Part shown: positions 21,766 through 51,612 of the stretch, piece after piece
How the letters are laid out: each line of letters opens with the position of its first letter
Numbering within the stretch: the stretch's first letter is position 1
NCBI GenBank assembly: GCA_022539475.1
Contig: VCMS01000005.1
Span: forward strand, 186,001 to 250,000
Source of the DNA: Gracilaria domingensis
Lineage: Eukaryota > Rhodophyta > Florideophyceae > Gracilariales > Gracilariaceae
Length of the DNA: 64,000 bases
Direction: 5' to 3'
Notes under the pieces: model-generated
Seen by the model: the letters and a program-made list of their open reading frames with translations, nothing else
The model's database searches: none
Told to the model about the DNA's origin: nothing
Program-made: the position numbers and the translations under genes

Positions 21766-24700
21766 TTATCCCACACTACGAGCCCTCTTCATACAAGACA
21801 AAGATCGGGAAAGTGCGTCTGGATAATGGACTTTGTCAACAGCGAGTTCCCCTTGCGCTTTGTTCACGCGCTTTGCGATCTCCAGCATCACTTTCTTCTC
21901 TGTTAACCATTCGAATTCGAACAACTTCGGTTCCCACCCATTATATATAGCCCGAGCTCTCTCAACACAGGTATCATCTGTGAACCGAGTCAACCATTCT
22001 ATCTCCACCACTTTTCCGGCAAGACTTTTGGCGACGCCAGCCTCTGCCTCAGAGACCGATTTCCAGGGTTGCAGGCGGCTTATAATACTATCGAAGCATT
22101 TCAATGTAGTTGAGTTCACCCAGGCTTGTGTTACTTGTATATTTCTTTCGCTTCTCGGTGCTTTCTTTCGACATCCTCCGTTCTGGAGCCATTCGATAAC
22201 ACATCGAGCAATCAGATCATTGCTCTTGCCTTCCAAGGATTGAGGGCTAACTCCTTGGTGCGATGTGCCCGTCGAGTTCGATTCGTTCACGCGGCCATCT
22301 CGAAGCAGGGGTGTTGAGCATTGGGAAAAGGAATTGGACATCTGTTGATAGCTAGGGAATCCAACTGGAAGACCAGGTTCGAGTTGGCGCTCCGGCTTTT
22401 CCGTATTTCTCCCTGGGGCGATGCTGTTGATAGACTCGTTCCCATCTGACCTACTTGCGACCTCGCGGTTATTTCGTCGAGGTCCACTGGTCGGTGTGTG
22501 GTTTTCTTCCAAAAGCTTTACCTTCGGACTTGATTGCGCCACCTCGCTTTGGATTCTTCTATAGTCTTCCCCCACAGTTGTCTTGACATCCTGAAGTGCA
22601 GAATGGAATAGTGTGGATGTCACTTGGGTTATCCTCTGAGCGATTTCTTTAGAGGAAGACTTAAATCTAAGCCTCTCAACCACTAGGCTTTCCTGCGCTT
22701 CCGACAGAATTTGCTGATTCATCTCGGCCATCTTCTTGTCAAGTGACTTTTCTAGAACCTTCAAGAAGTTATCGGAGCTACTCTTACAATCTCGATCGAC
22801 TTTCTCAATTCTTGTGCCGAGTTGAGCAATATCTCTCGACATGGAATCAACGCTCTTCTTTAGACCCTCGAACTCCTCTTTAGTCTTTTTGCTGATCATC
22901 GAAAACTTGTCATCCACTGTTCTCAGTGCATCGGACATAAGACGCTCTATGTCTTCCGAATCGTTCTTCATCTCGGGAACAACAGAGATGCGAGTGGCAG
23001 GTTGGACACTAGCTACCACGTAAGAGGGAACAATCCTTGGTTGAAGAATGCTGGCGCCACCTTGGTCGTAAGGGTTTCGCGGTGTGGTGGCAAATGGGAG
23101 CTGAGTGCTAACGCTGAATGCTGGTGTGACCATCGGAGCACTGGTTGTTCGCTGGGAGCTGATAATCGCGGAAGGATCCACAACGTTAGGTGTCGTTGAG
23201 ACTTGACGTTGCAAATTTGCCCGGGTTTTCGCCGTGGCAGAGTTGAGAGGCCCTGACGTTAGGGCTTGGCTTCCTGTCGACAAAAACGTTGTCGCACCAG
23301 CGACAAGAGGAGGAACTCTGTTCGTCCCGTGTGCCCATTGCAACGTTGTTTCACAGGGCGACACCGACGCGTCTCTGGTCGTGTGGTCTAACTCGTTCAT
23401 TCTATTTCCAGCGGATGCTGCTTCCGATGAAACTCGAATACCGCCTTGGGGATTCCGCGTATCATTCACATCTCGAAGTCCTGCAGGGTGTGCCGTGCTT
23501 GACAGGGGTTTTCTCCTCTTCGTGGCACCTGCCAAATTACCATACTCAGATGCACTTCGCTTTCGCCCTCTTTCAACCCCACTTTCTTTGTCCACATGGG
23601 CACGTCTTGTGGCTCTCAATGGTTGAAGCTCTTTCGACAGCCCAGAGTTGATCGAGGGGGTGCTTCCTTTTGCAATGATAGATACTTGCTTTGTCCCCGT
23701 CTCTTGTAAATTCGATGCCTTAGGGTTCGCCACGGCCTGGAGCGAAGACGATGTTTGTGGAGCCGATTGCTGTGTTTGGATCCTTCTCCCGTTCAGCGTA
23801 GAAGCCGCACAAGATACATTTGGCAGGCTCGGGAGCGGTGGCGCAGCATACAACCGTGTAGTTGTTGATGTTGTAGCTGCATATAATTTCGATGCTGAGC
23901 TTGAAGCGGTTCTGCTGTTTGGAACCAAAGCTAGAGATCGTGCTGATCCTAGATGGCTCTGAAATAAAACCCCCGGAAGGCCATTGTTTTGGAGATTAGA
24001 ACTCCCGCGGTGAGGCTGCGTAACATCTTTGGGGCTCGATACGAGGCTTTGGATAGAAATACTTCCAGAGGATTTCGGCATGGACGGTCGAGGTAGCTGG
24101 GGTTGAGTTTTGCGACCATCCGTGTGTGATTTTGAACGTCCTAGAGGTATACAAGCTTCTTGCGTCGCGACTGTGGTCGTTGTCCCTACAGACTGTGAGT
24201 TCGGCATGTCACGAGTCATTGACGCATTTTCTAAATGCACACGGGGAGGAGTTGGACTACTGATGCGAGGAATGGGCTTCATAGGGGTGTTTGGTCCTAA
24301 GCGTTGATCTATACCGGATGAGTGTCGAGAAGAACCAGCATTTTCATAAATATGAGATTGTGTTCTAGGCACATCCATTCGTAGGGATCTTGAAGAATAA
24401 GATACTGACAGAGGCTTATTTCTAGGGATTCGCTCGTTTGAAACAACCTTGGGTGAAGGATGCCTAGCCTTCTTTCGCATGACTGCGGAGTCAATTGGGA
24501 GTTGCTTCGACGTGTTTGAACTTCCTGCCTTCACAATTTCTGCGCGTGCATCCGCGACTTGCTTCGGCATGGTGCTTGTATTAATATCAGCTGGTTCGAT
24601 TGCTGATTTCGATTGTCCAACATATGTCGACTTCATAGCTTCTGAAACAACAGACTTTGATTGTGATACTCGAGACTTCAATTTAGGGGTTGCATGGTTG

Positions 24701-26964
24701 GGAGCGTTCGTCTTTGGCCTTTCGTGGGAACCATTCTCCACAGTAGCTTTGAAAGTACGTGGCCCAGCACTTGAACCTGATGGCACCTGTCGATGGTCGC
24801 CCGCTGAGATGGTTCTTTGCATGGACAGCGTGCTAGCCTGCGTAGGTGTGGCGATCTTCTTGCTCTGTGGGGCTGATACAGACTGCTTTGTCACACTTGT
24901 CTGTGGAATAGTATTAGCAGAGCGTTTGGACGGCACCATGGCTTGTGCCTTCGTTACGACCGCCTTGTTCTGCGTTGATGGCATTAACTGTTTTGTCAAA
25001 CTTCTCTGCGACACGACATTAGCAGGGCGCTCCGACGGTGTTTCAGTCCTTGTGGATGTTGCGACCATCTTGTTTTGTGTGGACGACATGAGCTGTTTTG
25101 GCAGGCTTTTCTGCGGCCCGACATTAATGGAGGGGGGGATGTTGTGAGTTCGCGCTACAGCAATGCCTGCCTGAGCGCCTGTGGAGAGCGGTGTAGTTGT
25201 CCTATGGGAATCCTTTTCAGTTCCTCCGTTATTCTTCTGTGGGGTGTGCTTCGCATTCTTTGCTGAGCCAGGAGATTTAAGGTGTAGGCTCGACTGCTTT
25301 CGGACCGCTACGGATGTGTTCGGATCAACGTTTGTTGGATTTCGAGACGGAAGGCCCACGACATTACCGGAGCTGCTGTTTGGTTTTACCCCTATTGTTT
25401 GCTGAGTCTTCGTGGCAGGACTTGTAGTTGCACCCGACATCTTGGTCTTCGCTTCGGGAAATGTACCATGCGAAACCGATTGATTGCCCATTGACGGTTT
25501 AGACATTTTAACCGCGGGAGCAAGGACGATGTGAGGGGGTTCTGAAGTTGTCTGCACTGCAGGACCATTAGTAGTTCTCTGGAGATTCCGAGTGAGTAGA
25601 GTCTTCGATTTCGTGACCGTGATTGAATTACTCTTGGTCACATCTGTTGTCGTGCGCCCCATTCTTTCACTCCTGCCGTTAACACCTGTGCTCTGTGTGT
25701 TCTTATTCACTGTGGCTTCCTTCGAGGTAGTCTGTGCAGCAGCTTTCGATGCACGCATGTGTGGGCTCGATACGGATGGCTTGCCAGTCTTTCTCCTTTG
25801 TGAGACAAGATTCGAAGTCGCATCCTGAACGGCTCCTTTGCGATGAGTGAGCTTTGGCAAAGCCGTGGCTGCGATCCCTGCAGAACTTTTCGAAACTGAG
25901 CGCTCCTGCATGGACAGAGAGAGTTTCCCGCTCGTTGTTTTCGATGTTATATTGCGCACATCGGGATTTACGGGCAAGCCGCTAGCCGCTTTCGCAGTCG
26001 CCCTGGAACCGGAAACGATTGAGCGGTTGACTGCGGACGGCGGAAGCTTTAGAGGGGGCGATTCGGGTGGATTTGCTGGTGGCTTGTTTCGATTGGGAGA
26101 GAGTTGGTAGGCAGCCAACGGAGCTGGACTAATAATTGGGTCGGCGCGATTCCCGAGAGCGGACGGTGCATTGTTAGGTGAAGTGTAGTTGTTCGGGGCT
26201 GAAAGCGAGGCAGATTGAGCGGAATAGGAGTTTCGATGATCTTTGTGGCAGTTAGGAGAAGTACGGGGAGGAATGGATTGAATAGCAGTGTGGGGGGACT
26301 TGTGGTGCGTGGAGCGGTTTTGGGTCGTAGACTTATTCCCACGAGCGTAATGGTGTTGCAGCTCGGAGGTATCGGCTGCAGATGAGGTATCGCCTCCGTA
26401 TCCCCTATCGAGGATCTCCTCTTCGATTACCTCGTGCTCAATGTCGGACACAATAGGGTCTGAAACATCGGAGGCGCGATGGTCTGAAACGCCACGCGGG
26501 TTGCGCTGAACGGGCACCTCTTCAATCTCAACGTCCGACTGCTGCGTGCTGAGGCTGAGAGAGCCGTCCAGCGTGATGACGGCGTCGTTGGAGTGGTGCG
26601 TGCGTTGCTTGTGACGCGCTCGCTTCGGCGGGGATTCGGGGTCGCCGTCGTCGTCGACGTCGTCGTCGTCGTCAATAACAATGGGCTCCGGCTCGTGAGT
26701 GGTGAAGAGGTTTCTCGAACGCTTTCTGGGACTGGCAGAGTGGGCTCGGGAGACGCGCTCGGCGGCATTGCCCCTGAAACGCCAGCGTTCGTTGGACAGG
26801 CGGAGCTTCTCCACCTCGCCATCCAGATAGGTGATGCGGTACCTGCCGTTGCTGAGAATGTCGTCAATGATGCCGGGGTAGTACTGCCTGTCAGCCGGCC
26901 ACCACACCTCGATTTCGTCACCGGCCTGCACCTGGTCGATGAGGTAGTCGTTGCGCAGTGCCAT
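21766..26964 (-). CDS. Giant Tudor-domain protein with coiled coil and a new C-terminal domain (paralogue A)
   Basis: 1732 aa in a single exon from the ATG at 26964 (MALRNDYL). Residues about 12-62 form a Tudor domain close to those of plant PDS5C and MSH6: GDEIEVWWPADRQYYPGIID, then Y-L-D-G-E-V-E-K-L-R-L...E-R-W-R-F; the aromatic W-W, Y-Y and W-R-F positions are typical of methyl-lysine readers. An acidic stretch (IDDDDDVDDD) and basic patch (PRKRSR) follow, then about 1200 residues of Ser/Thr/Pro-rich disorder. A coiled coil lies at about 1350-1500 (IERLMSDALRTVDDKFSMIS and onward). The last ~140 residues form a domain shared with paralogue B: ERARAIYNGWEPKLFEFEWL then TEKKVML. A nuclear chromatin scaffold or reader role is inferred. 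Divergent from paralogue B. Confidence 0.8.
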   Translation of the reverse strand: MALRNDYLIDQVQAGDEIEVWWPADRQYYPGIIDDILSNGRYRITYLDGEVEKLRLSNERWRFRGNAAERVSRAHSASPRKRSRNLFTTHEPEPIVIDDDDDVDDDGDPESPPKRARHKQRTHHSNDAVITLDGSLSLSTQQSDVEIEEVPVQRNPRGVSDHRASDVSDPIVSDIEHEVIEEEILDRGYGGDTSSAADTSELQHHYARGNKSTTQNRSTHHKSPHTAIQSIPPRTSPNCHKDHRNSYSAQSASLSAPNNYTSPNNAPSALGNRADPIISPAPLAAYQLSPNRNKPPANPPESPPLKLPPSAVNRSIVSGSRATAKAASGLPVNPDVRNITSKTTSGKLSLSMQERSVSKSSAGIAATALPKLTHRKGAVQDATSNLVSQRRKTGKPSVSSPHMRASKAAAQTTSKEATVNKNTQSTGVNGRSERMGRTTTDVTKSNSITVTKSKTLLTRNLQRTTNGPAVQTTSEPPHIVLAPAVKMSKPSMGNQSVSHGTFPEAKTKMSGATTSPATKTQQTIGVKPNSSSGNVVGLPSRNPTNVDPNTSVAVRKQSSLHLKSPGSAKNAKHTPQKNNGGTEKDSHRTTTPLSTGAQAGIAVARTHNIPPSINVGPQKSLPKQLMSSTQNKMVATSTRTETPSERPANVVSQRSLTKQLMPSTQNKAVVTKAQAMVPSKRSANTIPQTSVTKQSVSAPQSKKIATPTQASTLSMQRTISAGDHRQVPSGSSAGPRTFKATVENGSHERPKTNAPNHATPKLKSRVSQSKSVVSEAMKSTYVGQSKSAIEPADINTSTMPKQVADARAEIVKAGSSNTSKQLPIDSAVMRKKARHPSPKVVSNERIPRNKPLSVSYSSRSLRMDVPRTQSHIYENAGSSRHSSGIDQRLGPNTPMKPIPRISSPTPPRVHLENASMTRDMPNSQSVGTTTTVATQEACIPLGRSKSHTDGRKTQPQLPRPSMPKSSGSISIQSLVSSPKDVTQPHRGSSNLQNNGLPGVLFQSHLGSARSLALVPNSRTASSSASKLYAATTSTTTRLYAAPPLPSLPNVSCAASTLNGRRIQTQQSAPQTSSSLQAVANPKASNLQETGTKQVSIIAKGSTPSINSGLSKELQPLRATRRAHVDKESGVERGRKRSASEYGNLAGATKRRKPLSSTAHPAGLRDVNDTRNPQGGIRVSSEAASAGNRMNELDHTTRDASVSPCETTLQWAHGTNRVPPLVAGATTFLSTGSQALTSGPLNSATAKTRANLQRQVSTTPNVVDPSAIISSQRTTSAPMVTPAFSVSTQLPFATTPRNPYDQGGASILQPRIVPSYVVASVQPATRISVVPEMKNDSEDIERLMSDALRTVDDKFSMISKKTKEEFEGLKKSVDSMSRDIAQLGTRIEKVDRDCKSSSDNFLKVLEKSLDKKMAEMNQQILSEAQESLVVERLRFKSSSKEIAQRITQVTSTLFHSALQDVKTTVGEDYRRIQSEVAQSSPKVKLLEENHTPTSGPRRNNREVASRSDGNESINSIAPGRNTEKPERQLEPGLPVGFPSYQQMSNSFSQCSTPLLRDGRVNESNSTGTSHQGVSPQSLEGKSNDLIARCVIEWLQNGGCRKKAPRSERNIQVTQAWVNSTTLKCFDSIISRLQPWKSVSEAEAGVAKSLAGKVVEIEWLTRFTDDTCVERARAIYNGWEPKLFEFEWLTEKKVMLEIAKRVNKAQGELAVDKVHYPDALSRSLSCMKRARSVG

Positions 26965-27514
26965 GATGGTGAAGACGGGCAACTGAGAGGCCGACGCGCG
27001 GCGGCGGGGGCGGCGGCAGCGACCGAGGGCGACGGCGCGAGCGGGGCAGCGCACCTGCGGCACTTCGCAGGCACCAACGGTAGCGTAGCTTTGTAATCAC
27101 TCGAGCGAGCGGCGCGCAGAGCGAGCGCGCATGGGCGAGCGGCACGTGCGGAGCGCGGCGGTGCACAAACGCGCCGCGAAGGACACACCGCGGCTGCTCG
27201 CGTCCGCGCTCGCGCGCAAGCCTACTAGTCGCGAGGATGCGCCGGCCAGCGCAGACAGAGCCACCGGTCCGAAACGACAGTACCCTGCTGACAGCGTCTT
27301 ACAGCGCGCCCACGCGTGACGCGCTGCGCGCGCTTGGCAAGCGCCGCAGCGCGCGAGCGCGCCAAAACAGAAACGGCGAAAACGCGCGCGCGCGCAACCC
27401 GCAAAAAGCGCGCCACTTCCGGCGCCAGCTCCGCCGCGCCCACGTCGTCCTCACCTCAGCCGCTGCCCGCGCCGCGCGCACCGCCCTCGCCGCGCGCCTT
27501 GCACCGCCTTCACC
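26965..27514. promoter_or_regulatory. CG-rich bidirectional promoter of the two giant Tudor genes
   Basis: 550 bp between the ATGs at 26964 (minus) and 27515 (plus). 27080-27430 is packed with gcgc words; small open frames in it come from composition. No TATA box seen. As paralogues A and B share domains, a common promoter suggests co-expression; this is inference. Confidence 0.5.
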
Positions 27515-30500
27515 ATGGGTCGGCAACCGCCCACGCTGGGCGCCGACGAAAATCCGCCGTCGCCGCTGCCGCCCCCTACCCCGTACACCGAGCCGCCCAC
27601 CCCGCTTGACATGCCCGAGTCGCCCGTCGCGCTGCCGCGCTCGCTATCGCCGCGCCTGCGTCCGCTGCGCCGCCTCGCCGCGCGAAAGGACCCCGCCAGC
27701 GATAAGCTTTCCGCTCGCTCCCGTCGCCACGGCGATGGCGCTACCTCCGCCAATTCCACGTCGCCGTCACCGCCGCCTGCTGCCCCTGCGCAGAATGCGC
27801 CGCACTCGGACCTTCCGCAGAAAGAGGTCGCTGCGTCTGAGCATACACCTCCGGACAAGTCGCCCGAGCCGCGCACGCGATCTCTTGCTGAGAAGCCGCC
27901 GGAACCCCAAATCGATGCCTCTGCGCCTGCTGATATTTCTGATGCTGCTGCCGCCGCTTCGCCGGAACAACCGCCCACTGCGTCGCCTCCATCTGCGCCT
28001 GAACATCAATCTGATTTGCCGCGCAAGCCTGCCTCGTCCGACATGCCACCCGATGAGCCAGAGGCTGAGCCAGTGGTTGAACCAGAGGCTCAGCCACCCG
28101 CTGATGCCATGAATGTTGATAATCCCGTTTCTCAGGAATTACAAACCGAACAGGAGCCCCCACACCCCGGGAAAGACCAATCTGAGTCTGCTGCACACCC
28201 TTCGGATCCCTCTCAACAAACCGAACACCAGAATCACCCTGCTCTGTCACGCGAGCGCGACAAGTCTGCGCAGCCCGCCACACGGCGTTTGGCTCTGTCC
28301 GGTGCTGCGTTACACGAAGCCGCAGAGAAGACCGATTTAGCATCTGTGGAACCCACACTAGAAGCTGCTTCCAACACCGAGCCACCTGCAGAGGGCAATG
28401 CTCAAGTAGATGAGGCCATGCCTGACATTCAGCAGCGAACCAGTCCCGACGCCATAGCGCATGACAAGCCCGATGCCCCCTCTCCTCCAAATTCTAATGC
28501 TCTGCCCGACCTCCCCGAAACTGGAACGCAAGTGCAAGATGAAATCACACCCTCTGTTCCCGACAAGCCGCGCAATGATCAACCCACATCGCCTCCTCCG
28601 CACACCCCTCTGCAACCGATGGATACGTCTGCACCGCAACCAACGTCTGGTGAAGTGATAGATTTGGCTGATGGCGCAACACAGCCGAATCAAGTAAGCT
28701 CGAAAACCCCGCGTCCCCGCCAACTTGCGGTTCGTAGCGATTTTAACAAGTTTGAAAGACGACAATTAGCTGTGCGTACGCAAGAGCCGGAGGATCTACC
28801 TCATGAATCATCGGCAACCCCACTGTCGTCCTCACCGTCACCTGATGTATCCAAAAGTTTAAGGGGTGGTCCAAGATCCAGAACGCGAAAACGACATAGT
28901 TCACCAGACGAATTCGAGGGGCCGACATCTCGTTATGGTACTAGAAGCGCTACGAAAGAAACAGGATTCCTTCCGAACCGCCCGCGCACTCGACGTTACT
29001 CCGAACCAGCCATTACCACCATATCTGAACGAACAAGAAGCAGAAAGAAGTCGCAAATACAACCGGTGAAATCGCAAATACAACCGGTGAAAGGAGATAG
29101 GCTACGCGTCTTGTGGCACATTGACCTCCTTTACTACGAGGGAGTGGTTGACAGTGTACTCCACTACCGTGGGAAACAATTCTTTGATCTTACGTATGAT
29201 TCCGGAGAGAAAGAATTCTACTTGGACCTCTCCACGCGCAAATGGCGTTTTGCGGATGGGAGAGATGGAAACGACTCAGATGATAGTATACCAGAGCCTC
29301 AAGGGCTACCAGACTACGCAGAATTCCCTAAAGTTGGCGACAAGGTGCTGGTTATGTGGCATGTTGATGCGCAATACTATCCTGGTGTAGTCAAGGATAT
29401 TCTCAAGGTTGACAATGGGTGGTTTTATGACGTCGACTACGACGGCGGTGATCGCGAATTCTTCCTAGATTTGCATGTGAGAAAGTGGAAGTATGCTTTG
29501 GGCGGCGAGGCAAAGAAAAGGAAGCGGAAGATCGTACCACCGGCCAAACGCGCACCTCGAGAGAAAATTAAACGAGCAGCGAGGAAGTCAACAGGAGGTG
29601 GTAACTCGGCATACGAACCTCCCCCCAGTTCTTCGATGGCCACCGGAGATTCTCTTGATATCTTGGAATCAAGCGAGCACCAACCATCTCGATCGTTACG
29701 AAAGGTGGAGAGTTTGCTCGAGGACAAGGAGCGTCAAGAGCAGGAGCGAAGATCTCGGGAAGAACAGAAGAAAAGAGTAGCAGATCAACGACGAATGGAA
29801 GCGAAACGGGTACAGGCCCTTGCTCAGGAGCGAGAAGAGCAATTGCGAAGAGCCAATATTCCGAAAGGCATTGAACGTGAGCAGGACTCTGCGGTGGGAC
29901 TGCCAAGTAATCTGTCAGATGTTGGAGATGTTGCTGGTCCTAAGCCTTCTGTGACAAAGCCATCAACGGATATGCAGCCGACACAGGCGGAGCAATTGGA
30001 GCCCGCCATTGTTCTTGACCTCCCGGAGCTCGAAGATGAAACCTTTGAGAATATGATGGAAGATATTGGTGCACCGCTTGCTCCATCGTCTACCAAGAAG
30101 CGTCCGCGATCACCTGTGTCAGCGGTCGATGACGATGAGCAGGCCAAGCGAAAGAAAGGTTTCTCTTCAGCCGGGAAAACTCGAAATCTTGCTGCGCGCG
30201 AGAACCTGGACATTCCATCTGGGGAGGACTTTGTCAGTGACACAGTGAGAAATATTGGCGCACTTCAAAACCTCCCAATTCAAGAGATCAATGTATCGAG
30301 TACCGCACCATCCCCTCCTCAAAGACTATCGTCGCAGCATCAGGGAGAACTTTTTGCTTCAATCAAACAGTCTCATCTTCCACCGAACGCTGCTCCCCCT
30401 GCGCGGAAGACAGTGCAGCAGCGGGCTCGTTCAGCCCCTCGCACGCAACTCGCTCAACAGCATGTCTTGCAGTCAGAACCTGATTTCATTCCACGTCCTC

Positions 30501-33500
30501 GTTCCGTATCAAGGGCAAGGTCGAGGTCGCGACGACCTACTTCGCGAAGACGGACCACTTCTCCACATTCGTTCATTGAAAGACGAAGACTCATGTCGAA
30601 GGACAAGACCCCTATGTATACTCCTGCGTCCGAATATGGGTGGATGAGACCCTCCGCGTATTTGTCACAAAAGCGGGTAAGTTCGGCTAAGAAGGCAAAG
30701 ACTACTGTCGCAGACATAGTGTCAGTGTCAGGTCTGGTGGCGAAGAGATGGATCGAAGAGAACACAAAGCAAATTTCAGCCAACCTGAAGAACATGGAAA
30801 ACGAGCTTTCTAAGATGAAAGCGACTCATGCTAAACACATGAAGACTGAGAAAATGCGTCAGAATCGAGCAACTGCTCGGCAGCCCAGGAAACCAGCTGG
30901 TCCAGAAATGTCCGATGAAGAGAAGGATGCTGTGCTGGGGGGTGTAGGGGGTGAGTTCATGGGGCTCATCAAGAGATATAGGACAGTGGTGGAACGACGA
31001 GAACAAGTCCTCATACAACAATTTGCTAGGTTCCGGAAAACGTTGGGATCGCAGAATTCGAAGCTTGTGTCAACTGGAAAACAACTAGAAAAGTTAGACA
31101 TTCGTGGTCTTAAAGCCCTCGACAATCTGCAACCCATCACCAGAAGCAAGCTTGACATACCTCCACCTCTGCCGCCAAGACAGAAGATGAATCTTAACCA
31201 CGTATCACCATTCAAATCTCCATTACCATTACTTCATCAAGATACGGTCCAGGTGCTACAAAACGCAGATAGCCCTCGAGGCAAACCTGTAGATCGACCT
31301 GATAAGTCTGATGCCGTTGCAAAGAGTCTCCGTCGAAAACTGGCAGATCTCGTCACAAGATCGGACTGGTTGGGGGAAGAAGTAAAGCGCTTGCAGAACC
31401 GAGAGAGGTTTTTGGTGAAGGAGAAGAGAGAGGCAATCGCGGAGCTGAACAAAATGCGCTCAGAGAGGAGTTCTCCACTTCTTAAGACAACCCCATCGTC
31501 AAGTTCCAGAGCGCTTCCACCTCGATCAACATCTGTAAGGACATCCGATAGACCACTGCTTAAGTTTTCTCCAGCGAAGCCGGTTGGAATTGTGAAGAAC
31601 AGAACTGCGATGGAAAGTCGCAGTTCGGGGCGCAGTGCTGGCTGCATAGCACCACGGAAGAACTTGCCACCTGGTAACATGAACTATAAACCACCGATGC
31701 AACAAACACCCTCTCAATCTCGATCTGAGTTGAAGTCAGCTAGAACGAGGTCGCCTACTGTGACTCCCGCTGTACTTTCGAAATCAGTTCCAATGCAGGA
31801 ACCACCACCAGTGCCCAAGCCAGCAACTTTCGTGACACCGACGTCGAATCCAATGGAGGATGTGACGAAACCGGAGGTTTCGGGAACTGCTTCCACCGAG
31901 ATTGAGAAAGGGTCAAACTTTACCGACGAACTGGGCAAGTCAATGGACAAACAAGCATGGGAGTTGCTTGCACTCATTTTCACTATTTGGTTGCTACAGG
32001 ATGAAGGTCGGAGCGAACCGCCGAAGGAACCTGGCGAGAAGATGGACTCTTGGGTTAGAGCATGTGTGAGGAACTGCCTCAAGCATGCTAGGATATATCT
32101 TGAGGCGACATCTGGTATTACTACAGCGAGACGAAGTCTAATGCATGACGTGGATGGCGAGAACGTGTACGTAAAATGGATTCTCGGCGATTCCGATGAG
32201 AACTTTGAGCGAGCTCGTTCGAACTATTCGCTTTGGGAACCGACACTCCTTGATGTTGAATGGCTTGCTGAGAAGAGAGTGCTTCTTGGTCTGAGCATAT
32301 GTTATAAGAAGGCCTGGGGTGAAACTTCTGCACGACAATATGAAACTACTCTCATGTATGCTAAGGCCATTGCTCACAAAGCTGTTTCAAACTTCGAGCT
32401 CTACATGCCTCATACTATTGTTCTAGGGGCGACTCAAGTTTCGGTTCCTTCTGCTACAGGGGCGGAGTCTCAATCTCTACCTTCCCAACCTGGAGTTGGT
32501 AACCTAAAACATGGATCCCTGACTGTGGGCAAAGATTCCGGTATTGTGTCAGGTCCTGTTGCTGTCACTGAAGCCAACGAACCTGCAGCTGTCAAACCTG
32601 TGACGCAGCCTTCAAATGTGCTCATTGCTCAGCCATCTCTTCAAGGTACCAGCTTGCCTCTTTCCGGCAGACCCGTAGTTGAACAACCTCTCAGTGTTAC
32701 ATCAAGTCAGCTCGAAGCCACAAAGACTTCACGCTCAGGAATGGGGAGGATAACTGCTGGAACATCGCTGACTGCACCTGTGTCAGAACCTATCCGCTCT
32801 AACGCACAAAGTGCTACAGACACGACACTAGCTGCTACACAGAATATTACGCCGGAGCCTGGATCTACTGATCCCCAAGCGAACCTTGCGGGCCATCGAC
32901 AGCCGAATACTGCGGCTAATCTGTCACCAGTGGTTCCTCCCGTTCCATCGCCGGCATCTAGGGCGAAAGCTCCAGCCGAATCGACCGAGTCCCATGAAAA
33001 GGACAACGCTGCTACTACTGACAGACCAGACCCAAGGCCTTCCCGAAGTACAGCTGAAGACGCTGTTGAGGAACGAAAGATTCCAAATCCTTCCGATAAC
33101 AAACCCGCTTTTGGAAGTCATGAAGGTGATAAAAATGGTGAGAAAGGTAAGATTTCGTTGGGAACTTCAGCGTCAAAAAGTCTAAACACTTCCGGAACAC
33201 CGCCTAGACTTAACGTACAAAGTCCGTCATCCACTTCTCTATTAGCAAAGGACGTTAACAAAGGTACCACTTCACCCACAAAATCTACAAGTTTCGTGAA
33301 CGAACAGGGCGCCCAGGCTTCAACAAATGATTCGCAAGAGAATAGAGCAAAACCAGGTGTTGCTGAACGTAACCACCGAAATATTGAGCAAAAGAATATG
33401 GGCGGTGGAGGTGGTGAGAAAACACGGAACTCGAGTTCTAACGGAAATGATCAACTCACTCAGGCAGATAACGTGGATATTTCTTTGTCTAAACAGTCTG

Positions 33501-35017
33501 CAGTCGGGTCAGTCGTCTCCATGATTGTTGCTAGCGCAAGTCAATCCGGCTCTAATGAGAAAACGATTCCTTCTCCTTCACCAGTATCGGGTGCCCCTCA
33601 TCTGTCCAGCGCAACGATTGTCACATCAATGGGCGCCAACGTACCTGCCCATACACCGTCCGCACCTCGGAGCGCTCCAAGCAATGCTTCGTCAATACGG
33701 AGTGGTGCTGAGAAAGGTACGAATGTAAGTGATGAGAGCCTGTCGAAGAATACAGAAGCAGGGACTGGGCCGAAATCTAGCCAGCCCGCTGAGGCCGTGA
33801 CTAAGGAGTTCACATATGAAGCAACAGATTCAAGTACGAGGGATCATTCATCATCAGCAGTAGCTGAAACGACTAAATCGTCGACCATCGCAAGCGGGAA
33901 TGAGAAGGATGCAGGCGCTCAAAAGAATAGTACTGATTCTGGAAGGACTCTTCGCAGTTCAAAACCGCCCGGCTCTCGGGCGGTAGGAGGACTCCCATCG
34001 CAGTCAAATACGCAAGGATTGAAGCCACCGTCCCCATCCACGAAACGAGGCTCGAAAGCTGCAACTGGGAAAGGATCAGGGGCTAGGGGAAGAAAACAGA
34101 CGAAATCTGCGCGCAAAGGAGCTCCAAATAGAAGTAGACAGAATCGCACACCAACTCGTCCCAGAGACGCTCCAGGTGGCACTGGTTCTCCGAGAGTACA
34201 ACGAAAGGGAGCGAGGGCAGAATCTGAGCCTTCGGTCCCACAGACTGCTGGTATGGTAGGTCTGATGCGACTACCAGGAGCGTCACCCACCGTATCCCAG
34301 ACAGAAAACCGGGTATATCTAAGTTCCTCAATTCCCACAGAGTCGCTTGCCACACGCCAACCAGTCGGCATGAAGAGGCTTTCACAAACCCCAGCCTCTA
34401 CGGCCCCTCAACGTCGGATACTGTCTGGGGTAGATCCCGCAGAGTTTGATTCACTACCAAGTCCAATTCCAAGACGGCAGGGTTTGAAGGGAGTTTCGGA
34501 TGACCAATTTTCGCATGCTGTGCCGTACACAATTGAGCAGCAGAGCAACCCATATGCCCCGAATGGAAAGTGGGGTTCTCAGCAACCTGTTCAAAGGAAA
34601 GGATATAAGAGTTTGTCACTGATGCCACCTATGGCTCAGCAGAGCGCTCCTATTACAGGACATCCGGCAAATCCGTTCGACGCCAGAGCAGTTGCGTCCC
34701 CTTTTGAGTACAATAGAACGGGAGAGCAAGTTGTGGCAAGTGAGGCTCGGGCAGAAGTCGGACAAGAAAGTGGTTATCATGTTGCAGAACAGGTAGATGT
34801 GATGAACCCTCCTACCCCGGCCGCCCTTTCGGCTCTTGACTATGGTGTTGAGCCTGTACATCGAGATCCTGTGCCTTCGACCACAGAGTTTCAAGAACGG
34901 TTCGATAGAGGGTACGACCCTTACAGGTCTCAGATTGGCCACATTGTGAATACTATGCCACGGGAGGGTTTTAATGCCACAAGAAATGTCCTGCCTAAGG
35001 AATATGGGAAACGGTAG
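27515..35017 (+). CDS. Giant tandem-Tudor protein with coiled coils and a shared new domain (paralogue B)
   Basis: 2500 aa in one exon, ATG at 27515 (caccATGgg, good context). Residues 1-510 are Pro/Ser/Glu-rich disorder. An exact 21-bp repeat gives SQIQPVK twice (513-526). Two Tudor domains follow: about 527-582 (GDRLRVLWHIDLLYYEGVVD...KWRF) and 607-664 (GDKVLVMWHVDAQYYPGVVK...KWKY), each with the aromatic pocket positions. A basic stretch (KKRKRKIVPPAKRAPREK, about 667) is a likely nuclear signal. Coiled coils lie at about 715-790 and 1070-1310. At about 1475-1630 is the domain shared with paralogue A (FERARSNYSLWEPTLLDVEW, then LAEKRVLL). A disordered Ser/Thr-rich tail of about 870 residues ends the protein. 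Likely a chromatin scaffold reading methylated histone; function unproven. Confidence 0.82.
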   Translation: MGRQPPTLGADENPPSPLPPPTPYTEPPTPLDMPESPVALPRSLSPRLRPLRRLAARKDPASDKLSARSRRHGDGATSANSTSPSPPPAAPAQNAPHSDLPQKEVAASEHTPPDKSPEPRTRSLAEKPPEPQIDASAPADISDAAAAASPEQPPTASPPSAPEHQSDLPRKPASSDMPPDEPEAEPVVEPEAQPPADAMNVDNPVSQELQTEQEPPHPGKDQSESAAHPSDPSQQTEHQNHPALSRERDKSAQPATRRLALSGAALHEAAEKTDLASVEPTLEAASNTEPPAEGNAQVDEAMPDIQQRTSPDAIAHDKPDAPSPPNSNALPDLPETGTQVQDEITPSVPDKPRNDQPTSPPPHTPLQPMDTSAPQPTSGEVIDLADGATQPNQVSSKTPRPRQLAVRSDFNKFERRQLAVRTQEPEDLPHESSATPLSSSPSPDVSKSLRGGPRSRTRKRHSSPDEFEGPTSRYGTRSATKETGFLPNRPRTRRYSEPAITTISERTRSRKKSQIQPVKSQIQPVKGDRLRVLWHIDLLYYEGVVDSVLHYRGKQFFDLTYDSGEKEFYLDLSTRKWRFADGRDGNDSDDSIPEPQGLPDYAEFPKVGDKVLVMWHVDAQYYPGVVKDILKVDNGWFYDVDYDGGDREFFLDLHVRKWKYALGGEAKKRKRKIVPPAKRAPREKIKRAARKSTGGGNSAYEPPPSSSMATGDSLDILESSEHQPSRSLRKVESLLEDKERQEQERRSREEQKKRVADQRRMEAKRVQALAQEREEQLRRANIPKGIEREQDSAVGLPSNLSDVGDVAGPKPSVTKPSTDMQPTQAEQLEPAIVLDLPELEDETFENMMEDIGAPLAPSSTKKRPRSPVSAVDDDEQAKRKKGFSSAGKTRNLAARENLDIPSGEDFVSDTVRNIGALQNLPIQEINVSSTAPSPPQRLSSQHQGELFASIKQSHLPPNAAPPARKTVQQRARSAPRTQLAQQHVLQSEPDFIPRPRSVSRARSRSRRPTSRRRTTSPHSFIERRRLMSKDKTPMYTPASEYGWMRPSAYLSQKRVSSAKKAKTTVADIVSVSGLVAKRWIEENTKQISANLKNMENELSKMKATHAKHMKTEKMRQNRATARQPRKPAGPEMSDEEKDAVLGGVGGEFMGLIKRYRTVVERREQVLIQQFARFRKTLGSQNSKLVSTGKQLEKLDIRGLKALDNLQPITRSKLDIPPPLPPRQKMNLNHVSPFKSPLPLLHQDTVQVLQNADSPRGKPVDRPDKSDAVAKSLRRKLADLVTRSDWLGEEVKRLQNRERFLVKEKREAIAELNKMRSERSSPLLKTTPSSSSRALPPRSTSVRTSDRPLLKFSPAKPVGIVKNRTAMESRSSGRSAGCIAPRKNLPPGNMNYKPPMQQTPSQSRSELKSARTRSPTVTPAVLSKSVPMQEPPPVPKPATFVTPTSNPMEDVTKPEVSGTASTEIEKGSNFTDELGKSMDKQAWELLALIFTIWLLQDEGRSEPPKEPGEKMDSWVRACVRNCLKHARIYLEATSGITTARRSLMHDVDGENVYVKWILGDSDENFERARSNYSLWEPTLLDVEWLAEKRVLLGLSICYKKAWGETSARQYETTLMYAKAIAHKAVSNFELYMPHTIVLGATQVSVPSATGAESQSLPSQPGVGNLKHGSLTVGKDSGIVSGPVAVTEANEPAAVKPVTQPSNVLIAQPSLQGTSLPLSGRPVVEQPLSVTSSQLEATKTSRSGMGRITAGTSLTAPVSEPIRSNAQSATDTTLAATQNITPEPGSTDPQANLAGHRQPNTAANLSPVVPPVPSPASRAKAPAESTESHEKDNAATTDRPDPRPSRSTAEDAVEERKIPNPSDNKPAFGSHEGDKNGEKGKISLGTSASKSLNTSGTPPRLNVQSPSSTSLLAKDVNKGTTSPTKSTSFVNEQGAQASTNDSQENRAKPGVAERNHRNIEQKNMGGGGGEKTRNSSSNGNDQLTQADNVDISLSKQSAVGSVVSMIVASASQSGSNEKTIPSPSPVSGAPHLSSATIVTSMGANVPAHTPSAPRSAPSNASSIRSGAEKGTNVSDESLSKNTEAGTGPKSSQPAEAVTKEFTYEATDSSTRDHSSSAVAETTKSSTIASGNEKDAGAQKNSTDSGRTLRSSKPPGSRAVGGLPSQSNTQGLKPPSPSTKRGSKAATGKGSGARGRKQTKSARKGAPNRSRQNRTPTRPRDAPGGTGSPRVQRKGARAESEPSVPQTAGMVGLMRLPGASPTVSQTENRVYLSSSIPTESLATRQPVGMKRLSQTPASTAPQRRILSGVDPAEFDSLPSPIPRRQGLKGVSDDQFSHAVPYTIEQQSNPYAPNGKWGSQQPVQRKGYKSLSLMPPMAQQSAPITGHPANPFDARAVASPFEYNRTGEQVVASEARAEVGQESGYHVAEQVDVMNPPTPAALSALDYGVEPVHRDPVPSTTEFQERFDRGYDPYRSQIGHIVNTMPREGFNATRNVLPKEYGKR
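29051..29092 (+). repeat. Exact 21-bp tandem duplication in the giant Tudor gene
   Basis: Two identical, adjacent copies of a 21-base unit (29051-29071, 29072-29092) encode SQIQPVK twice, immediately before the first Tudor domain. With no differences between copies, the duplication is probably recent. Confidence 0.95.
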
Positions 35018-37764: not shown

Positions 37765-39084
37765 ATGGCGCCCGGCTCGACGCTCCCCGCCCTCCACCAG
37801 CGCGTTTATATCTGGTTCGATGGCTATGATGAGTACTACCCCGGTCGCGTCGCTAATCTCACCCCTCCCTTCGAGTTCAAGGTCGTCTTAGAAGACGGTA
37901 CCGATTGGAATATCGACTCAAGGAAACACGTCTACAAGTTCTCCAACGACGACGCGGAGAAACAAACAGAACCTGAAGAGGAACCTGAAAAGATGGACAC
38001 GGAGCAAAAACCCAGTAGCAAAAAGAAAGACGATGAATCTGAAAAGCAAGTCTCTGCGGATGACCAACCCGAACCAAACGGTGCCCAGACGCGTCGTCGT
38101 GCAGGTAGGGCTCTGAGGAAGAACGCTGCCCCGTCGAGGACTGTCGAGCCCGATGTCGCGCCGCAAGTAGATCAAGAAGAGGAACCACAGGAAGAAGCTG
38201 AAAACGACGAGAACGACGACTACGTTCCCAAAGAGGATGATGAGAATGAACCGGAAAAGATCCCAAGGCTTAGAAGGTCAGCAAGATCAGCAAGAGCTAC
38301 CGATGAAGAACGTGAGCGTCGCACTACAAGGAGCAGAGCGAGGGCCATTGAAGAGCCTGTTGGATTGCCTCCCCGAACACGCAAGAAGGCGCCTGCAAAG
38401 AGAACGATGAAGCCAAGTGCAGAAGATGAAAGGCCAATGAAGAGACGAAAGCAAGTTGAGGAACCCATGGACCAGTTAGACGATGAACCCATCCGCGATG
38501 AGGATGGTGCGGCGGGCTTGTCTACCAAGGCAGTCACTGCAATTGCTGTTCAAGCTGCACTAGAGAGCGCCAAAGCAGTTCTCAAACCATTGAGCGATAA
38601 AATGACTTCCATTGTGAAGTCGTTCTCAGAAATAAATGTTCTCATGAAACAGAGTACAGAGGCTGCCGCGCGAGATGCTGTCAAGAAGGTGATATCAGAA
38701 CCAGAAGCTTCAAAAGGAACTCTCGCAGCCTTAGCAAATTTCCAGCTCGACTTCGCGGAAGTGGTTGGTGGCGGAGAAGCAAGAATGAAGGCGTATTCGA
38801 ATTTGAGCGAGCAAGAATTCGACCATTTGAATCGAATGATTGAGTACCAAGGCAAAGCCCTGAAAGAACTGGAACGTTTGCTGTATGCCGCTAAAGAATT
38901 TGGGAAAAAACCGGTCCTGGAAGAACCGGAACCCAACCCAGACGCAGAGGTGAACGGAAAGGGCAACGGAAAAGGAAAAGGAAATGGAAAGGACAAAGAG
39001 AGCGAAAACGAGAAGAAAGGGGAAACGAGAAAGAAAAAAGAACTGAATAGTTCTAATCCATCTGCTGAAGATGGACTACCGTAG
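37765..39084 (+). CDS. Tudor-domain protein with basic/acidic linker and coiled coil (paralogue C)
   Basis: 439 aa from the ATG at 37765 (caaaATGgcg, strong context); an in-frame ATG at 37615 would add 50 residues not like the rest. Residues about 8-55 form a Tudor domain: HQRVYIWFDGYDEYYPGRVA, then E-D-G-T-D-W-N and H-V-Y-K-F, related to those of the giant genes but ending differently. Acidic Glu/Lys-rich disorder follows (60-270) with several basic patches (RRRAGRALRK, RTRKKAPAKR, MKRRKQ) fit for DNA or nuclear import. Residues about 255-395 are helical and coiled-coil-prone. The tail is a Gly-Lys-Asn run (GKGNGKGKGNGKDK). It lacks the W-E-P...E-W-L domain of paralogues A and B. A chromatin role is inferred from the Tudor domain. 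Confidence 0.75.
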   Translation: MAPGSTLPALHQRVYIWFDGYDEYYPGRVANLTPPFEFKVVLEDGTDWNIDSRKHVYKFSNDDAEKQTEPEEEPEKMDTEQKPSSKKKDDESEKQVSADDQPEPNGAQTRRRAGRALRKNAAPSRTVEPDVAPQVDQEEEPQEEAENDENDDYVPKEDDENEPEKIPRLRRSARSARATDEERERRTTRSRARAIEEPVGLPPRTRKKAPAKRTMKPSAEDERPMKRRKQVEEPMDQLDDEPIRDEDGAAGLSTKAVTAIAVQAALESAKAVLKPLSDKMTSIVKSFSEINVLMKQSTEAAARDAVKKVISEPEASKGTLAALANFQLDFAEVVGGGEARMKAYSNLSEQEFDHLNRMIEYQGKALKELERLLYAAKEFGKKPVLEEPEPNPDAEVNGKGNGKGKGNGKDKESENEKKGETRKKKELNSSNPSAEDGLP

Positions 39085-49179: not shown

Positions 49180-49521
49180 TTAATGGGCTTTGGGCACAAT
49201 AGGGCGAATAAGTTCGGGACTGACATTTTCGTCGACGCTGCCATCATCATACCGCAAGTCATACGTATACTTCTTGCGGTCAAACACACCACCGCCTGTG
49301 TAAATCAACTTTGCGGCGATATTCTTTTCGGCGTAAAGCCCAACCTCATTTGAAAGCGGAGCTTCCCGAACATTTATAACATCACAAGCGAAATAGTTAC
49401 CCAGTCGATTTCCTTTCTTGACGGCTTCGACACGGGTGCCAAGTTCAATCTTGTTGCGGAAGGTTTTCTTGTAGCGGTCGCGGATTTTTCCTTTGAGGTT
49501 GTGGGAGTGAGCGTACGTCAT
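49180..49521 (-). CDS. Small Tudor-like domain protein
   Basis: 113 aa, ATG at 49521, TGA-free frame to a TAA-type stop at 49180. After a basic head (KGKIRDRYKKTFRNK) the protein is one small beta domain: IELGTRVEAVKKGNRLGNYF, A-C-D-V-I-N-V-R-E, then Y-D-L-R-Y-D-D-G-S-V-D-E-N-V-S-P-E-L-I-R-P-I. The last part is the Y-D-I/V-R-Y-D-D-G-x-x-E...L-I-R pattern of a widespread Tudor-like repeat of protists and algae, unlike the W-W/Y-Y type of the giant genes. No other domain is present. Function is unknown; binding to protein or nucleic acid is possible. It diverges from the DUF1995 gene. Confidence 0.65.
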   Translation of the reverse strand: MTYAHSHNLKGKIRDRYKKTFRNKIELGTRVEAVKKGNRLGNYFACDVINVREAPLSNEVGLYAEKNIAAKLIYTGGGVFDRKKYTYDLRYDDGSVDENVSPELIRPIVPKAH

Positions 49522-50471
49522 TTTCGAGCAAAGCGGAGAGTTGCTTGCGGGGATACGTGTGAGCTGTTGTGGTGAACGCGTTGTTCTATGCGTGATGAGG
49601 GAGGCGGAGCGGGCGAGATGGTTTTTATAGAGGCGGGCATGACAGAAACGGAGCTGAGAATTAAGTGCATTTTAGGTACACGTCAGTTCTGTAATGTGAC
49701 AGCGGCACCAATAGCTGCAGATAATTATGACAGCGCTTCACGGCAGAATCGAATTGGAGCACCGTTTCACATGTGCATATTATGTGCGCTACAGCGGTTT
49801 CTACGACAGGGAATCGCGTCCATGGTGTTCGTTCGTAGAACTTACAAGCGCATAACATAAGCTGTGCATCGAAACCTTATCCTTTCTGAGATCACTCATG
49901 GCTCGAACATTGCTTGTGGAAACATCTAGGCAACACACCAGTCTGGGCTTCGAGCCAAAAGTAGCAAAAGGGATGCAACACTACCAGTGTTTGCGACAAC
50001 TCTGCAACTCAATGCTCACAAAAGCGCACGTTTAGGTTAGTGACTCACGAAGGGACTATCTGCGAAGTGTCCTTTGGCTGTCAGATGCAGTGTTTGAATT
50101 TAAAAGTGGGTTCAGTTGTGTGTTACGCAAGCTCTGTACACGATCATCGTGGTGGTAAAGGGAGCGTTCGCTGGATGCCGTTGACGGTTAACTAGTTGAC
50201 CGAGTTGTTGAAAGTTAACTTCATCATCTTCCCTAAAGCAGTTGATCATAGTGATCGCGATGACAACAAGGCTTCACAAAAACATGACATGTTCATCACA
50301 TTATTGTCACCCTTGACGCATTCCTGAAAATCTTGTGAGAAGGGAGATTTTGAAATGCGGGAGTGAATGTTAGCCGCAGAAGCATCGTGTGGTCGACAGA
50401 CACGCGCATGAGGGTGATTCATTCCTCCGCGGTATCTACGATACGAGCATGAGCACGCATCGGTGTTGGCA
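49522..50471. other. Divergent gap between the small Tudor-like gene and the DUF1995 gene
   Basis: Both flanking genes read outward, so their promoters lie here. Open frames at 49588-49860 (plus) and 50246-50545 (minus) show no known motif. No TATA box was recognised. Confidence 0.4.
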
Positions 50472-51395
50472 ATGCACTCAAAAGAAGCAACATCCGCGCG
50501 GAGTACCATGCCTTCAAGCCAAGCTGTCACATTCATTCCTCTCATCGGTCTGAAAAGTGCTGTTCATGAAGTTGGTGGCATTCGAGTCGCTCGCCGCCGC
50601 CGTGCACCGCTTCAAGACCATTGCGTCTGGCGAACCCCAACATGTTGCGCCCCGCCCGCGACACTTTCTTTCCCGTTTTTCGATGATCAACGAGGGGCGC
50701 GAGGGTTGTACCGCGTGTCCTACGCCAAGGTGCTTTCTCAGTGCGTGAATGCATTGCAAGATGTTGTGCAAAACGGCGCAGACAACGGCTCAAACGCATT
50801 GAAGTTTACCATCGACTTCCCTCCAGACAAGTCTGAAGCTAGCACTGGAACGCTTGTTTCCAGGTTTGAAAACAACCTCAACTTCACAGAGAAGCTGCTT
50901 GCGGGATTGGGCGTTCCTTTGGATCAATGTGAACGCGTTGGCGGTGAGGTAAACATTTGTGACAACATCAATCCTCAGGGCGGTGGTGAGTATCTCACTG
51001 ACGATGAATGCATGGTGGGCTTTCGCACAAGGCAATGCGCGTCGCTTCAAGGACGGCCGCTAGTGGCGCTGTTCAACGCGGGGATGGACGGCAGCACGCT
51101 CAAGCAAGTGAAACCGCTGGACAAGGACGAGGAGGGGGTGGTGGTGCTGGTGAACTGCGGGCTGGACCGGCTGTCGTGGTTCGCCAAACGCGGCTTCGCC
51201 AAGTACATCGGCGAGTTTGCGGCGGCGTACTACCTCAAAGCGGTGGGCAGCGGGTGGCTGCTCAAGGCGGGCGCCTCGCCGTGGCGCACGCTGGCGCCGC
51301 TGGGCGGCGCGCTGCAGAGCATCGGCGAGGCCGAGCACAAGCCCAAGCTGGTCGACGTCGAGGCGCAGATCCGCTTCGCGCTCGCGCGCGCTTGA
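50472..51395 (+). CDS. DUF1995-family protein, probably plastid-targeted
   Basis: 307 aa from the ATG at 50472; a second in-frame ATG at 50508 (MPSSQAVTFIP) would give 295 aa. Residues 1-75 are Ser/Arg-rich without acidic residues in the middle (GGIRVARRRRAPLQ), fit for a transit peptide. The rest matches the DUF1995 layout: YRVSYAKVLSQCVNALQDVV, then A-L-K-F-T-I-D-F-P-P at its start, later GRPLVALFNAGMDG, V-V-L-V-N-C-G-L-D-R-L-S-W-F and LKAVGSGWLLKAGASPWRTL. Land-plant members include LPA3, a photosystem II assembly factor, but most members are uncharacterised. The 3' end is much more GC-rich than the 5' end. SMC5 follows 217 bp downstream on the same strand. Confidence 0.72.
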   Translation: MHSKEATSARSTMPSSQAVTFIPLIGLKSAVHEVGGIRVARRRRAPLQDHCVWRTPTCCAPPATLSFPFFDDQRGARGLYRVSYAKVLSQCVNALQDVVQNGADNGSNALKFTIDFPPDKSEASTGTLVSRFENNLNFTEKLLAGLGVPLDQCERVGGEVNICDNINPQGGGEYLTDDECMVGFRTRQCASLQGRPLVALFNAGMDGSTLKQVKPLDKDEEGVVVLVNCGLDRLSWFAKRGFAKYIGEFAAAYYLKAVGSGWLLKAGASPWRTLAPLGGALQSIGEAEHKPKLVDVEAQIRFALARA

Positions 51396-51612
51396 TCCGT
51401 CACGCTGCGCACCACGCGCACACGTGGCGGGAGGCGCTTGGCGCTCTCCTGCCGCGGCGCCACTCGGCTGGTGCGTTGCGCCGCGCGGCACTTCGCGCCA
51501 AAACGCTATCGCTGAACGCAACGCGTTCATGCGCCGCCCGTCGTAAACTTCCGGCGCACCTCGTGCGCTCAGCGCTACGCGCCCCGTCTTGAGAGTTCCG
51601 TCCGCTTCCGAC

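What the first reader, a model, noticed from the sequence alone, without database searches (positions are those of the whole stretch)
21766..35017. Two giant divergent paralogues combine Tudor domains with an unrecognised W-E-P/E-W-L domain
Both proteins (1732 and 2500 aa, each a single exon) have Tudor domains near plant PDS5C/MSH6 type and share a second block of about 140 residues. The best part aligns ERARAIYNGWEPKLFEFEWL with ERARSNYSLWEPTLLDVEWL, followed by EKKVML and EKRVLL. The block also keeps an upstream WV...C and WL helix pair. I know no named family with this pairing. The Tudor number differs (one against two) and so does the placement of the shared block (C-terminal against internal), so they are an old duplicate pair kept head-to-head around one CG-rich promoter. 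A chromatin-scaffold function is inference.
Basis: partly seen in the sequence, partly recalled or inferred. Interest (0 to 1): 0.78.

Follow-up and report, generated by a model that had tools for sequence, protein, structure and literature searches.

The report
Paired giant Tudor-domain proteins
Two very long, mostly unstructured proteins, encoded side by side in opposite directions in a possibly algal genome, share a histone-reader-type Tudor domain and a second helical domain that matched no catalogued family, so they look like an old duplicate pair of chromatin-tethering proteins with a possibly new domain.

Summary
Two single-frame genes (1732 and 2500 aa) diverge from a 550-bp, 73% GC interval. 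They share RDM15/PDS5C-type Tudors (one against two) and a block of about 130 residues (BLASTP E=2e-15; 0 of 1000 shuffles). Most of the rest scores as disordered, and the stretches compared outside show no convincing shared sequence. The Tudor profile's best solved relative is 7DE9, the Arabidopsis RDM15 Tudor that reads H3K4me1 (E=2.4e-12). Its three cage residues are kept in 3 of 3 Tudors of the pair. Its first mono-methyl-selecting aspartate (D643) is kept in the small protein but is Ser or Gly in the large one. The block matched no Pfam family and nothing significant in PDB sequences or folds. AlphaFold2's best model is a helical bundle (pLDDT 75, pTM 0.75), most conserved at the ERAR..Y..WEP.L...EWL.EK turn. 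Best reading: diverged chromatin tethers, with a Tudor holding methylated histone and a helical module holding a partner. Duplication and Tudor type are shown; histone and partner binding are inferred. No eukaryotic collection could be searched, so the block's spread is unknown.

The parts
21766..26964 (-). gene P1, 1732 aa: N-terminal Tudor, long stretch scoring as disordered, helical/coil segment, C-terminal helical block
   Evidence: open frame and ATG; stop-free length far beyond chance and disorder scale
26782..26925 (-). P1 Tudor domain, residues 14-61
   Evidence: phmmer to 7DE9 E=1.6e-8; cage W/Y/Y and D643 kept
22753..22881 (-). P1 heptad-like helix, residues 1362-1404 (weak, home-made score)
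   Evidence: heptad scan; coordinates converted by hand
21847..22242 (-). P1 copy of the shared helical block, residues 1575-1706
   Evidence: BLASTP E=2e-15; shuffles 0/1000; AlphaFold2 model
21883..21963 (-). most conserved 27 residues of the block in P1 (ERARAIYNGWEPKLFEFEWLTEKKVML)
   Evidence: 16 of 27 identical to P2; best-window permutation 25/20000
26965..27514 (.). interval between the two start codons, presumed shared promoter
   Evidence: 550 bp, GC 0.73, CpG o/e 1.42; promoter function inferred
27515..35017 (+). gene P2, 2500 aa: N-terminus scoring as disordered, two Tudor domains, long disordered stretch, internal helical block, tail of about 900 aa scoring as disordered
   Evidence: open frame and ATG; stop counts and disorder scale
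29090..29245 (+). P2 Tudor a, residues 526-577
   Evidence: BLASTP to P1 Tudor; phmmer of the tandem pair to 7DE9 E=1.1e-4, best stretch in Tudor a; cage kept, D643 is S
29333..29488 (+). P2 Tudor b, residues 607-658
   Evidence: BLASTP to P1 Tudor; Pfam Tudor_5 E=2.7e-5, below its curated cut-off; cage kept, D643 is G
31937..32323 (+). P2 copy of the shared helical block, residues 1475-1603
   Evidence: BLASTP E=2e-15
32207..32287 (+). most conserved 27 residues of the block in P2 (ERARSNYSLWEPTLLDVEWLAEKRVLL)

Best explanation
The two genes are an old inverted (head-to-head) duplicate pair. Each protein is a long flexible tether with two kinds of folded part: Tudor domain(s) of the RDM15/PDS5C kind that hold a methylated lysine of histone H3 (most likely H3K4), and a helical module that binds a partner protein, probably through its conserved WEP/EWL turn. 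The copies have diverged: P1 keeps acidic residues at both positions that in RDM15 select mono-methyl lysine (D and E for D643 and D645), whereas P2 has two Tudors that keep the aromatic cage but lack the first of those aspartates, so P2 should be less selective for, or bind more than, the mono-methyl state. Shown: homology, layout, Tudor type, residue pattern. Inferred: histone binding, methyl-state split, partner binding, shared promoter.
For: Shared Tudor and shared block in the same order in neighbouring divergent genes. Best solved relative of the Tudor profile is 7DE9 at E=2.4e-12, next hit 6.8e-4. 7DE9 is the RDM15 Tudor (legend in PMC13361950); in its H3K4me1 complex the cage is Trp616, Tyr623, Tyr641, with Asp643/Asp645 coordinating the mono-methyl group and Glu647/Gln654 the H3R2 (PMC8184781 passages). 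At those seven positions P1 has W Y Y D E E E, P2a W Y Y S E E R, P2b W Y Y G D E R. On the TOP-IDP scale (my threshold 0.10, segments of 12 residues or more) the low-disorder segments are the Tudors, parts of the block, and one further stretch in P2 (1151-1171); 91% and 89% of windows score as disordered. The block folds as helices with pTM 0.75 in the best model, and its identity is concentrated in 27 residues (16 of 27; the other aligned columns 25 of 138).
Against: No binding, localisation or expression data. Pfam Tudor matches stay below their curated cut-offs. Only 2 of 5 AlphaFold2 models of the block exceed a mean pLDDT of 70 (75.2, 71.0, 49.1, 39.4, 37.5), the alignment held two sequences, and the P2 block alone gave pLDDT 41.7. 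The conserved WEP loop itself is below pLDDT 50. The 27-residue window was chosen after seeing the alignment, though the permutation allows for that. P2 has Arg and P1 Glu where RDM15 has Gln654. No third member of the block was found, in collections of viral contigs and prokaryotic genomes.
Confidence: 0.55

Rival explanations
1. The block is a very diverged member of a known helical protein-binding domain (for example of the TFIIS-N/LEDGF type that accompanies PWWP readers elsewhere, recalled), which sequence profiles miss. The proteins would then be a version of a known reader-plus-adaptor design.
For: Small all-helical model; a histone reader joined to a helical adaptor is a known layout (recalled). 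A two-sequence alignment is a weak query, and HMMER's filters drop most matches above about E=0.1 (note).
Against: No Pfam family listed at E<=10 for either copy; Foldseek against PDB found nothing better than E=1.2, with TM-scores below 0.3 in the 50 of 137 rows shown; PDB sequence profile best E=0.3.
Confidence: 0.25
2. The Tudors read methyl marks on non-histone proteins, or methyl-arginine, and the proteins act in RNA or DNA-repair assemblies rather than on H3.
For: Tudor domains as a class bind many methylated ligands (recalled); P2 lacks D643 and has Arg where RDM15 has Gln654.
Against: The nearest solved relative by far is the H3K4me1 reader and the full cage is kept in 3 of 3 Tudors of the pair.
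Confidence: 0.2
3. Not a gene duplication: Tudor and block were brought together twice by domain shuffling, and the head-to-head layout is coincidence.
For: The stretches between Tudor and block show no convincing similarity (coil regions: 31 of 1000 shuffles reach the score; first disordered stretches: 262 of 300).
Against: Same two domains, same order, adjacent genes; disordered stretches are expected to lose similarity.
Confidence: 0.06
4. One or both frames are not single genes (in-frame introns or fused neighbours).
For: Introns seem to occur in this genome: the anoctamin gene is split between two frames that match successive parts of the Pfam model, and a DnaJ gene appears split (J-domain frame recognised by eye). 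No transcripts could be checked.
Against: No internal stop in 1732 and 2500 codons; both shared domains lie within one frame in each gene.
Confidence: 0.07

Closest known systems
Arabidopsis RDM15 (AT4G31880; also called PDS5C, recalled), Tudor structure 7DE9
   Same: Tudor domain: phmmer E=1.6e-8 for P1; cage residues W616, Y623, Y641 and E647 kept in 3 of 3 Tudors of the pair.
   Different: RDM15's Tudor is C-terminal (PMC8184781); in P1 it is N-terminal, in P2 duplicated and internal. Pfam scans of P1 and P2 at E<=1 gave no PDS5-like repeat family. D643 absent in P2.
Plant MSH6 (Tudor plus MutS)
   Same: Also carries a Tudor said to bind H3K4me1 (PMC12292046 passage).
   Different: No MutS family in either window protein at E<=1. 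The MSH6 Tudor sequence itself was not compared.
LEDGF-type readers (PWWP plus helical adaptor domain; recalled)
   Same: Supposed working layout: histone reader at one place, helical protein-binding module at another, flexible chain between.
   Different: Tudor instead of PWWP; no match of the block to a Pfam family.

Membership tests
RDM15/PDS5C-type Tudor | significant sequence match to the solved Tudor | tested here: met
   E=2.4e-12 (profile of four window Tudors), 1.6e-8 (P1), 1.1e-4 (P2 pair, best stretch in Tudor a)
RDM15/PDS5C-type Tudor | aromatic cage W616/Y623/Y641 | tested here: met
   kept in 3 of 3 Tudors of P1 and P2; the nearby P3 has F/Y/L
RDM15/PDS5C-type Tudor | both mono-methyl-selecting acids D643 and D645 | tested here: inconclusive
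   P1: D and E; P2a: S and E; P2b: G and D. Met conservatively by P1, not met by P2
RDM15/PDS5C-type Tudor | binding of H3K4me1 | not testable with these tools
   needs peptide binding
PDS5C protein (whole) | PDS5-like helical-repeat part besides the Tudor (feature recalled) | tested here: not met
   no such family among the Pfam matches of P1 (4 listed) and P2 (1 listed) at E<=1
Any Pfam domain for the shared block | profile match | tested here: not met
   0 families listed for both copies at E<=10 (HMMER filters drop most matches above about 0.1)
Any solved fold for the shared block | structural match | tested here: inconclusive
   best Foldseek E=1.2 (PDB) and 1.4 (viral models); the model is only moderately sure and the second aligner was unavailable

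The most novel reading that the evidence does not exclude
The block founds a new helical domain family, peculiar to an algal lineage and regularly joined to RDM15-type Tudors, and the head-to-head pair divides the H3K4 methyl states between two giant tethers: one for mono-methyl, one (tandem Tudor without D643) for other states.
Probability: 0.25. Interest if true: 0.62.

Novelty: new variant of a known kind. Interest (0 to 1): 0.42.

Why it matters
H3K4me1 reading by this Tudor type is described from Arabidopsis, where it is tied to DNA methylation and, for PDS5C and MSH6, to DNA repair (PMC8184781 and PMC13361950 passages). It also offers a natural comparison of Tudors that keep or lack a mono-methyl-selecting aspartate, testable with three small domains. 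If the helical block is a new family, it adds a module to chromatin biology.

Tried and rejected
Relatives of the block: the search for related loci with the block alignment in viral contigs (20 stretches matched a pattern, 0 confirmed) and in genome contigs (77 stretches, 0 confirmed), and with the P2 block alone in viral contigs (1 stretch, 0 confirmed). A WEP.L...EWL DNA pattern gave 9 stretches in viral contigs. On translation none of the 9 had ERAR..Y before the W or EK two residues after EWL; five of them look like copies of one element with stops in the frame. The best tblastn E was 0.089. I take them as chance. Collections with eukaryotes were not available, so absence says little.

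Structure: the P2 block alone folded poorly (pLDDT 41.7), though its helix order resembles the P1 model except for missing helix 75-86. Foldseek against PDB (50 of 137 rows shown) and viral models (50 of 197 shown) gave no credible match.

Residual similarity outside Tudor and block: coil regions 31 of 1000 shuffles, first disordered stretches 262 of 300; remainder of P3 against P1 183 of 200 and against P2 109 of 200. The third Tudor-like gene P3 was considered as another duplicate. It resembles the P1 Tudor (0 of 1000 shuffles) but not P2a (434 of 1000) and hardly P2b (43 of 1000); its best PDB hit is EPL1 at E=0.36, its cage is degenerate, and no block-like match was seen in it. Left open.

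Weak Pfam matches in the P1 coil segment (Lectin_N E=0.011, STAT_alpha 0.18, ATG17_like 0.74, all below cut-off) were taken as coiled-coil noise. NCBIfam gave only P1 0.13 and 0.97 (coil segment) and P3 0.049, nothing for P2.

Literature: searches for PDS5C/RDM15, Tudor with red algae (20 of 142 papers listed), MSH6/Tudor (12 of 15 listed), CENP-C, H3K4me1 Tudor with algae (2 of 2), Tudor with Chondrus (4 of 4). In the listings I saw no paper on this protein pair; without a species or gene name such a search is weak. I saw passages only of PMC13361950, PMC8184781, PMC12292046 and PMC9252888, and listings of the rest.

Full report
What is there. The window looks eukaryotic by its genes and no whole genome is held for it. 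Two long frames diverge from a common interval: P1 on the minus strand, 26964 to 21766, 1732 aa, and P2 on the plus strand, 27515 to 35017, 2500 aa. From base composition about 75 and 109 in-frame stops would be expected; each frame has only its terminal stop, while the other five frames hold 42 to 85 (P1) and 63 to 156 (P2). The interval between the start codons is 550 bp with GC 0.73 and CpG observed/expected 1.42, against 0.511 and 1.09 for the window.

Homology of the pair. BLASTP of P1 against P2 finds a block at P1 1575-1706 and P2 1475-1603, 36 of 132 identical, E=2e-15, and the P1 Tudor against each of two Tudors in P2, E=2e-8 and 4e-8. Residue shuffles never reach these scores (0 of 1000 each). 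The two Tudors of P2 are 25 of 52 identical. Between the shared parts I found no convincing similarity: the coil regions score above most shuffles (31 of 1000 reach the score), the first disordered stretches do not (262 of 300). At identical residues of the block with a choice of codon, 16 of 36 use the same codon where 11.0 are expected from codon usage; for the two Tudors of P2 it is 4 of 23 against 9.0. Silent sites are therefore at or close to saturation and the duplications are old.

The Tudors. A profile of four window Tudors (three from P1/P2 and the one from P3) hits 7DE9 in the PDB at E=2.4e-12; the next hit is 6.8e-4. P1 alone hits it at 1.6e-8 and the P2 pair at 1.1e-4, the best stretch being Tudor a. 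7DE9 is the Tudor of Arabidopsis RDM15 (figure legend in PMC13361950), gene AT4G31880, solved with H3K4me1 (PMC8184781 passages); that this gene is also called PDS5C is recalled. The paper names Trp616, Tyr623 and Tyr641 as the cage, Asp643 and Asp645 as the residues that coordinate the two protons of mono-methyl lysine, and Glu647 and Gln654 for H3R2. These seven letters fit the 7DE9 stretch in one register only, 7 of 7. P1 reads W Y Y D E E E, P2a W Y Y S E E R, P2b W Y Y G D E R, and the nearby P3 F Y L D D N Y. Hence P1 and both P2 Tudors have a complete cage, P1 keeps an acidic pair, and P2 lacks the first acid. My prediction is mono-methyl preference for P1 and weaker or different state preference for P2.

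The block. It matched no Pfam family at E<=10, gave no NCBIfam match when the whole proteins were scanned (the two P1 matches, E 0.13 and 0.97, lie in the coil segment), and no PDB sequence better than E=0.3. AlphaFold2 on the two-sequence alignment gives seven helices with mean pLDDT 75.2 and pTM 0.75 in the best of five models; three of the five are poor (49.1, 39.4, 37.5). The WL and WV...C features lie in the first and second helix, ERAR..Y in and just after the fifth, and EWL.EK..(M/L)L in the sixth; the WEP turn between them is below pLDDT 50. Identity is concentrated there: 16 of 27 columns against 41 of 165 overall; a permutation that allows for choosing the best window gives 25 of 20000. 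A conserved, uncertainly modelled turn of this kind is what a binding site could look like, but that is inference. The P2 block alone folded badly (pLDDT 41.7) with a broadly similar helix order. Foldseek found no credible neighbour in PDB (best E=1.2) or among viral models (best E=1.4). This does not prove a new fold.

Architecture and mechanism. On the TOP-IDP scale (threshold 0.10, chosen by me; segments under 12 residues dropped) 91% of P1 and 89% of P2 windows score as disordered, and the segments that do not are the Tudors, parts of the block and one short stretch in P2 at 1151-1171. A weak heptad pattern lies at P1 1362-1404 and P2 1075-1115. I read both proteins as flexible tethers: a Tudor part on methylated H3 and a helical part on a partner, separated by about 1500 residues in P1 and 800 in P2. 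In P2 the chain continues for about 900 residues past the block. The tether role rests on domain types, not on data.

Limits. No collection of eukaryotic genomes or proteomes was at hand, so whether the block exists elsewhere is open; the negative searches cover viral contigs and prokaryotic genomes only. Searches used a faulty pattern and are void. The species is not known. A DUF1995 protein agrees with a photosynthetic organism by my recall of that family, and the intron-poor layout agrees with, but does not show, a red alga.

Verdict. It is a new variant of a known kind: RDM15-type Tudors in an architecture that I did not find described, with a module that is uncatalogued in the libraries searched here.

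Noticed in passing
window 61132-63999 (-): Frame open at the window edge whose C-terminus (RRSKRQRFPRLKYWKNEVVSYERRN) resembles the CENP-C motif: 4 of 7 PDB hits with the last 76 residues are named CENP-C or centromere protein C (E 0.015 to 0.6), though the top hit is an L51_S25_CI-B8 domain protein (E=0.0035); with the whole frame the best of 2 hits is CENP-C at E=0.74. No Pfam family listed at E<=10, so no cupin seen. CENP-C or a KNL2-like protein (recalled) is possible.
   Followed up: partly
window 37765-39084 (+): Third Tudor-like gene 2.7 kb downstream of P2 (P3, from the Met at residue 51 of the frame), with a degenerate cage (F/Y/L) and a heptad-like segment at residues 326-356 of the frame; no sign of the shared block.
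   Followed up: partly
window 49180-49671 (-): Short frame with a weak Tudor/Agenet-like match (Tudor_5 E=0.011, Agenet E=0.15). Against the other Tudors 173 (P1), 10 (P2a), 117 (P2b) and 139 (P3) of 1000 shuffles reach the score.
   Followed up: partly
window 51589-54885 (+): SMC-family ATPase in a single frame (SMC_N E=5e-21); looks like SMC5 by recall.
   Followed up: no
window 29047-29092 (+): 21-base tandem repeat (2.2 copies, 96% match) just before the first P2 Tudor, giving KSQIQPVKSQIQPVK: probably a recent small duplication inside P2.
   Followed up: no
window 50463-51395 (+): DUF1995 protein (E=7.6e-7), a family I recall from cyanobacteria and photosynthetic eukaryotes; the best hint to the kind of organism.
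   Followed up: no
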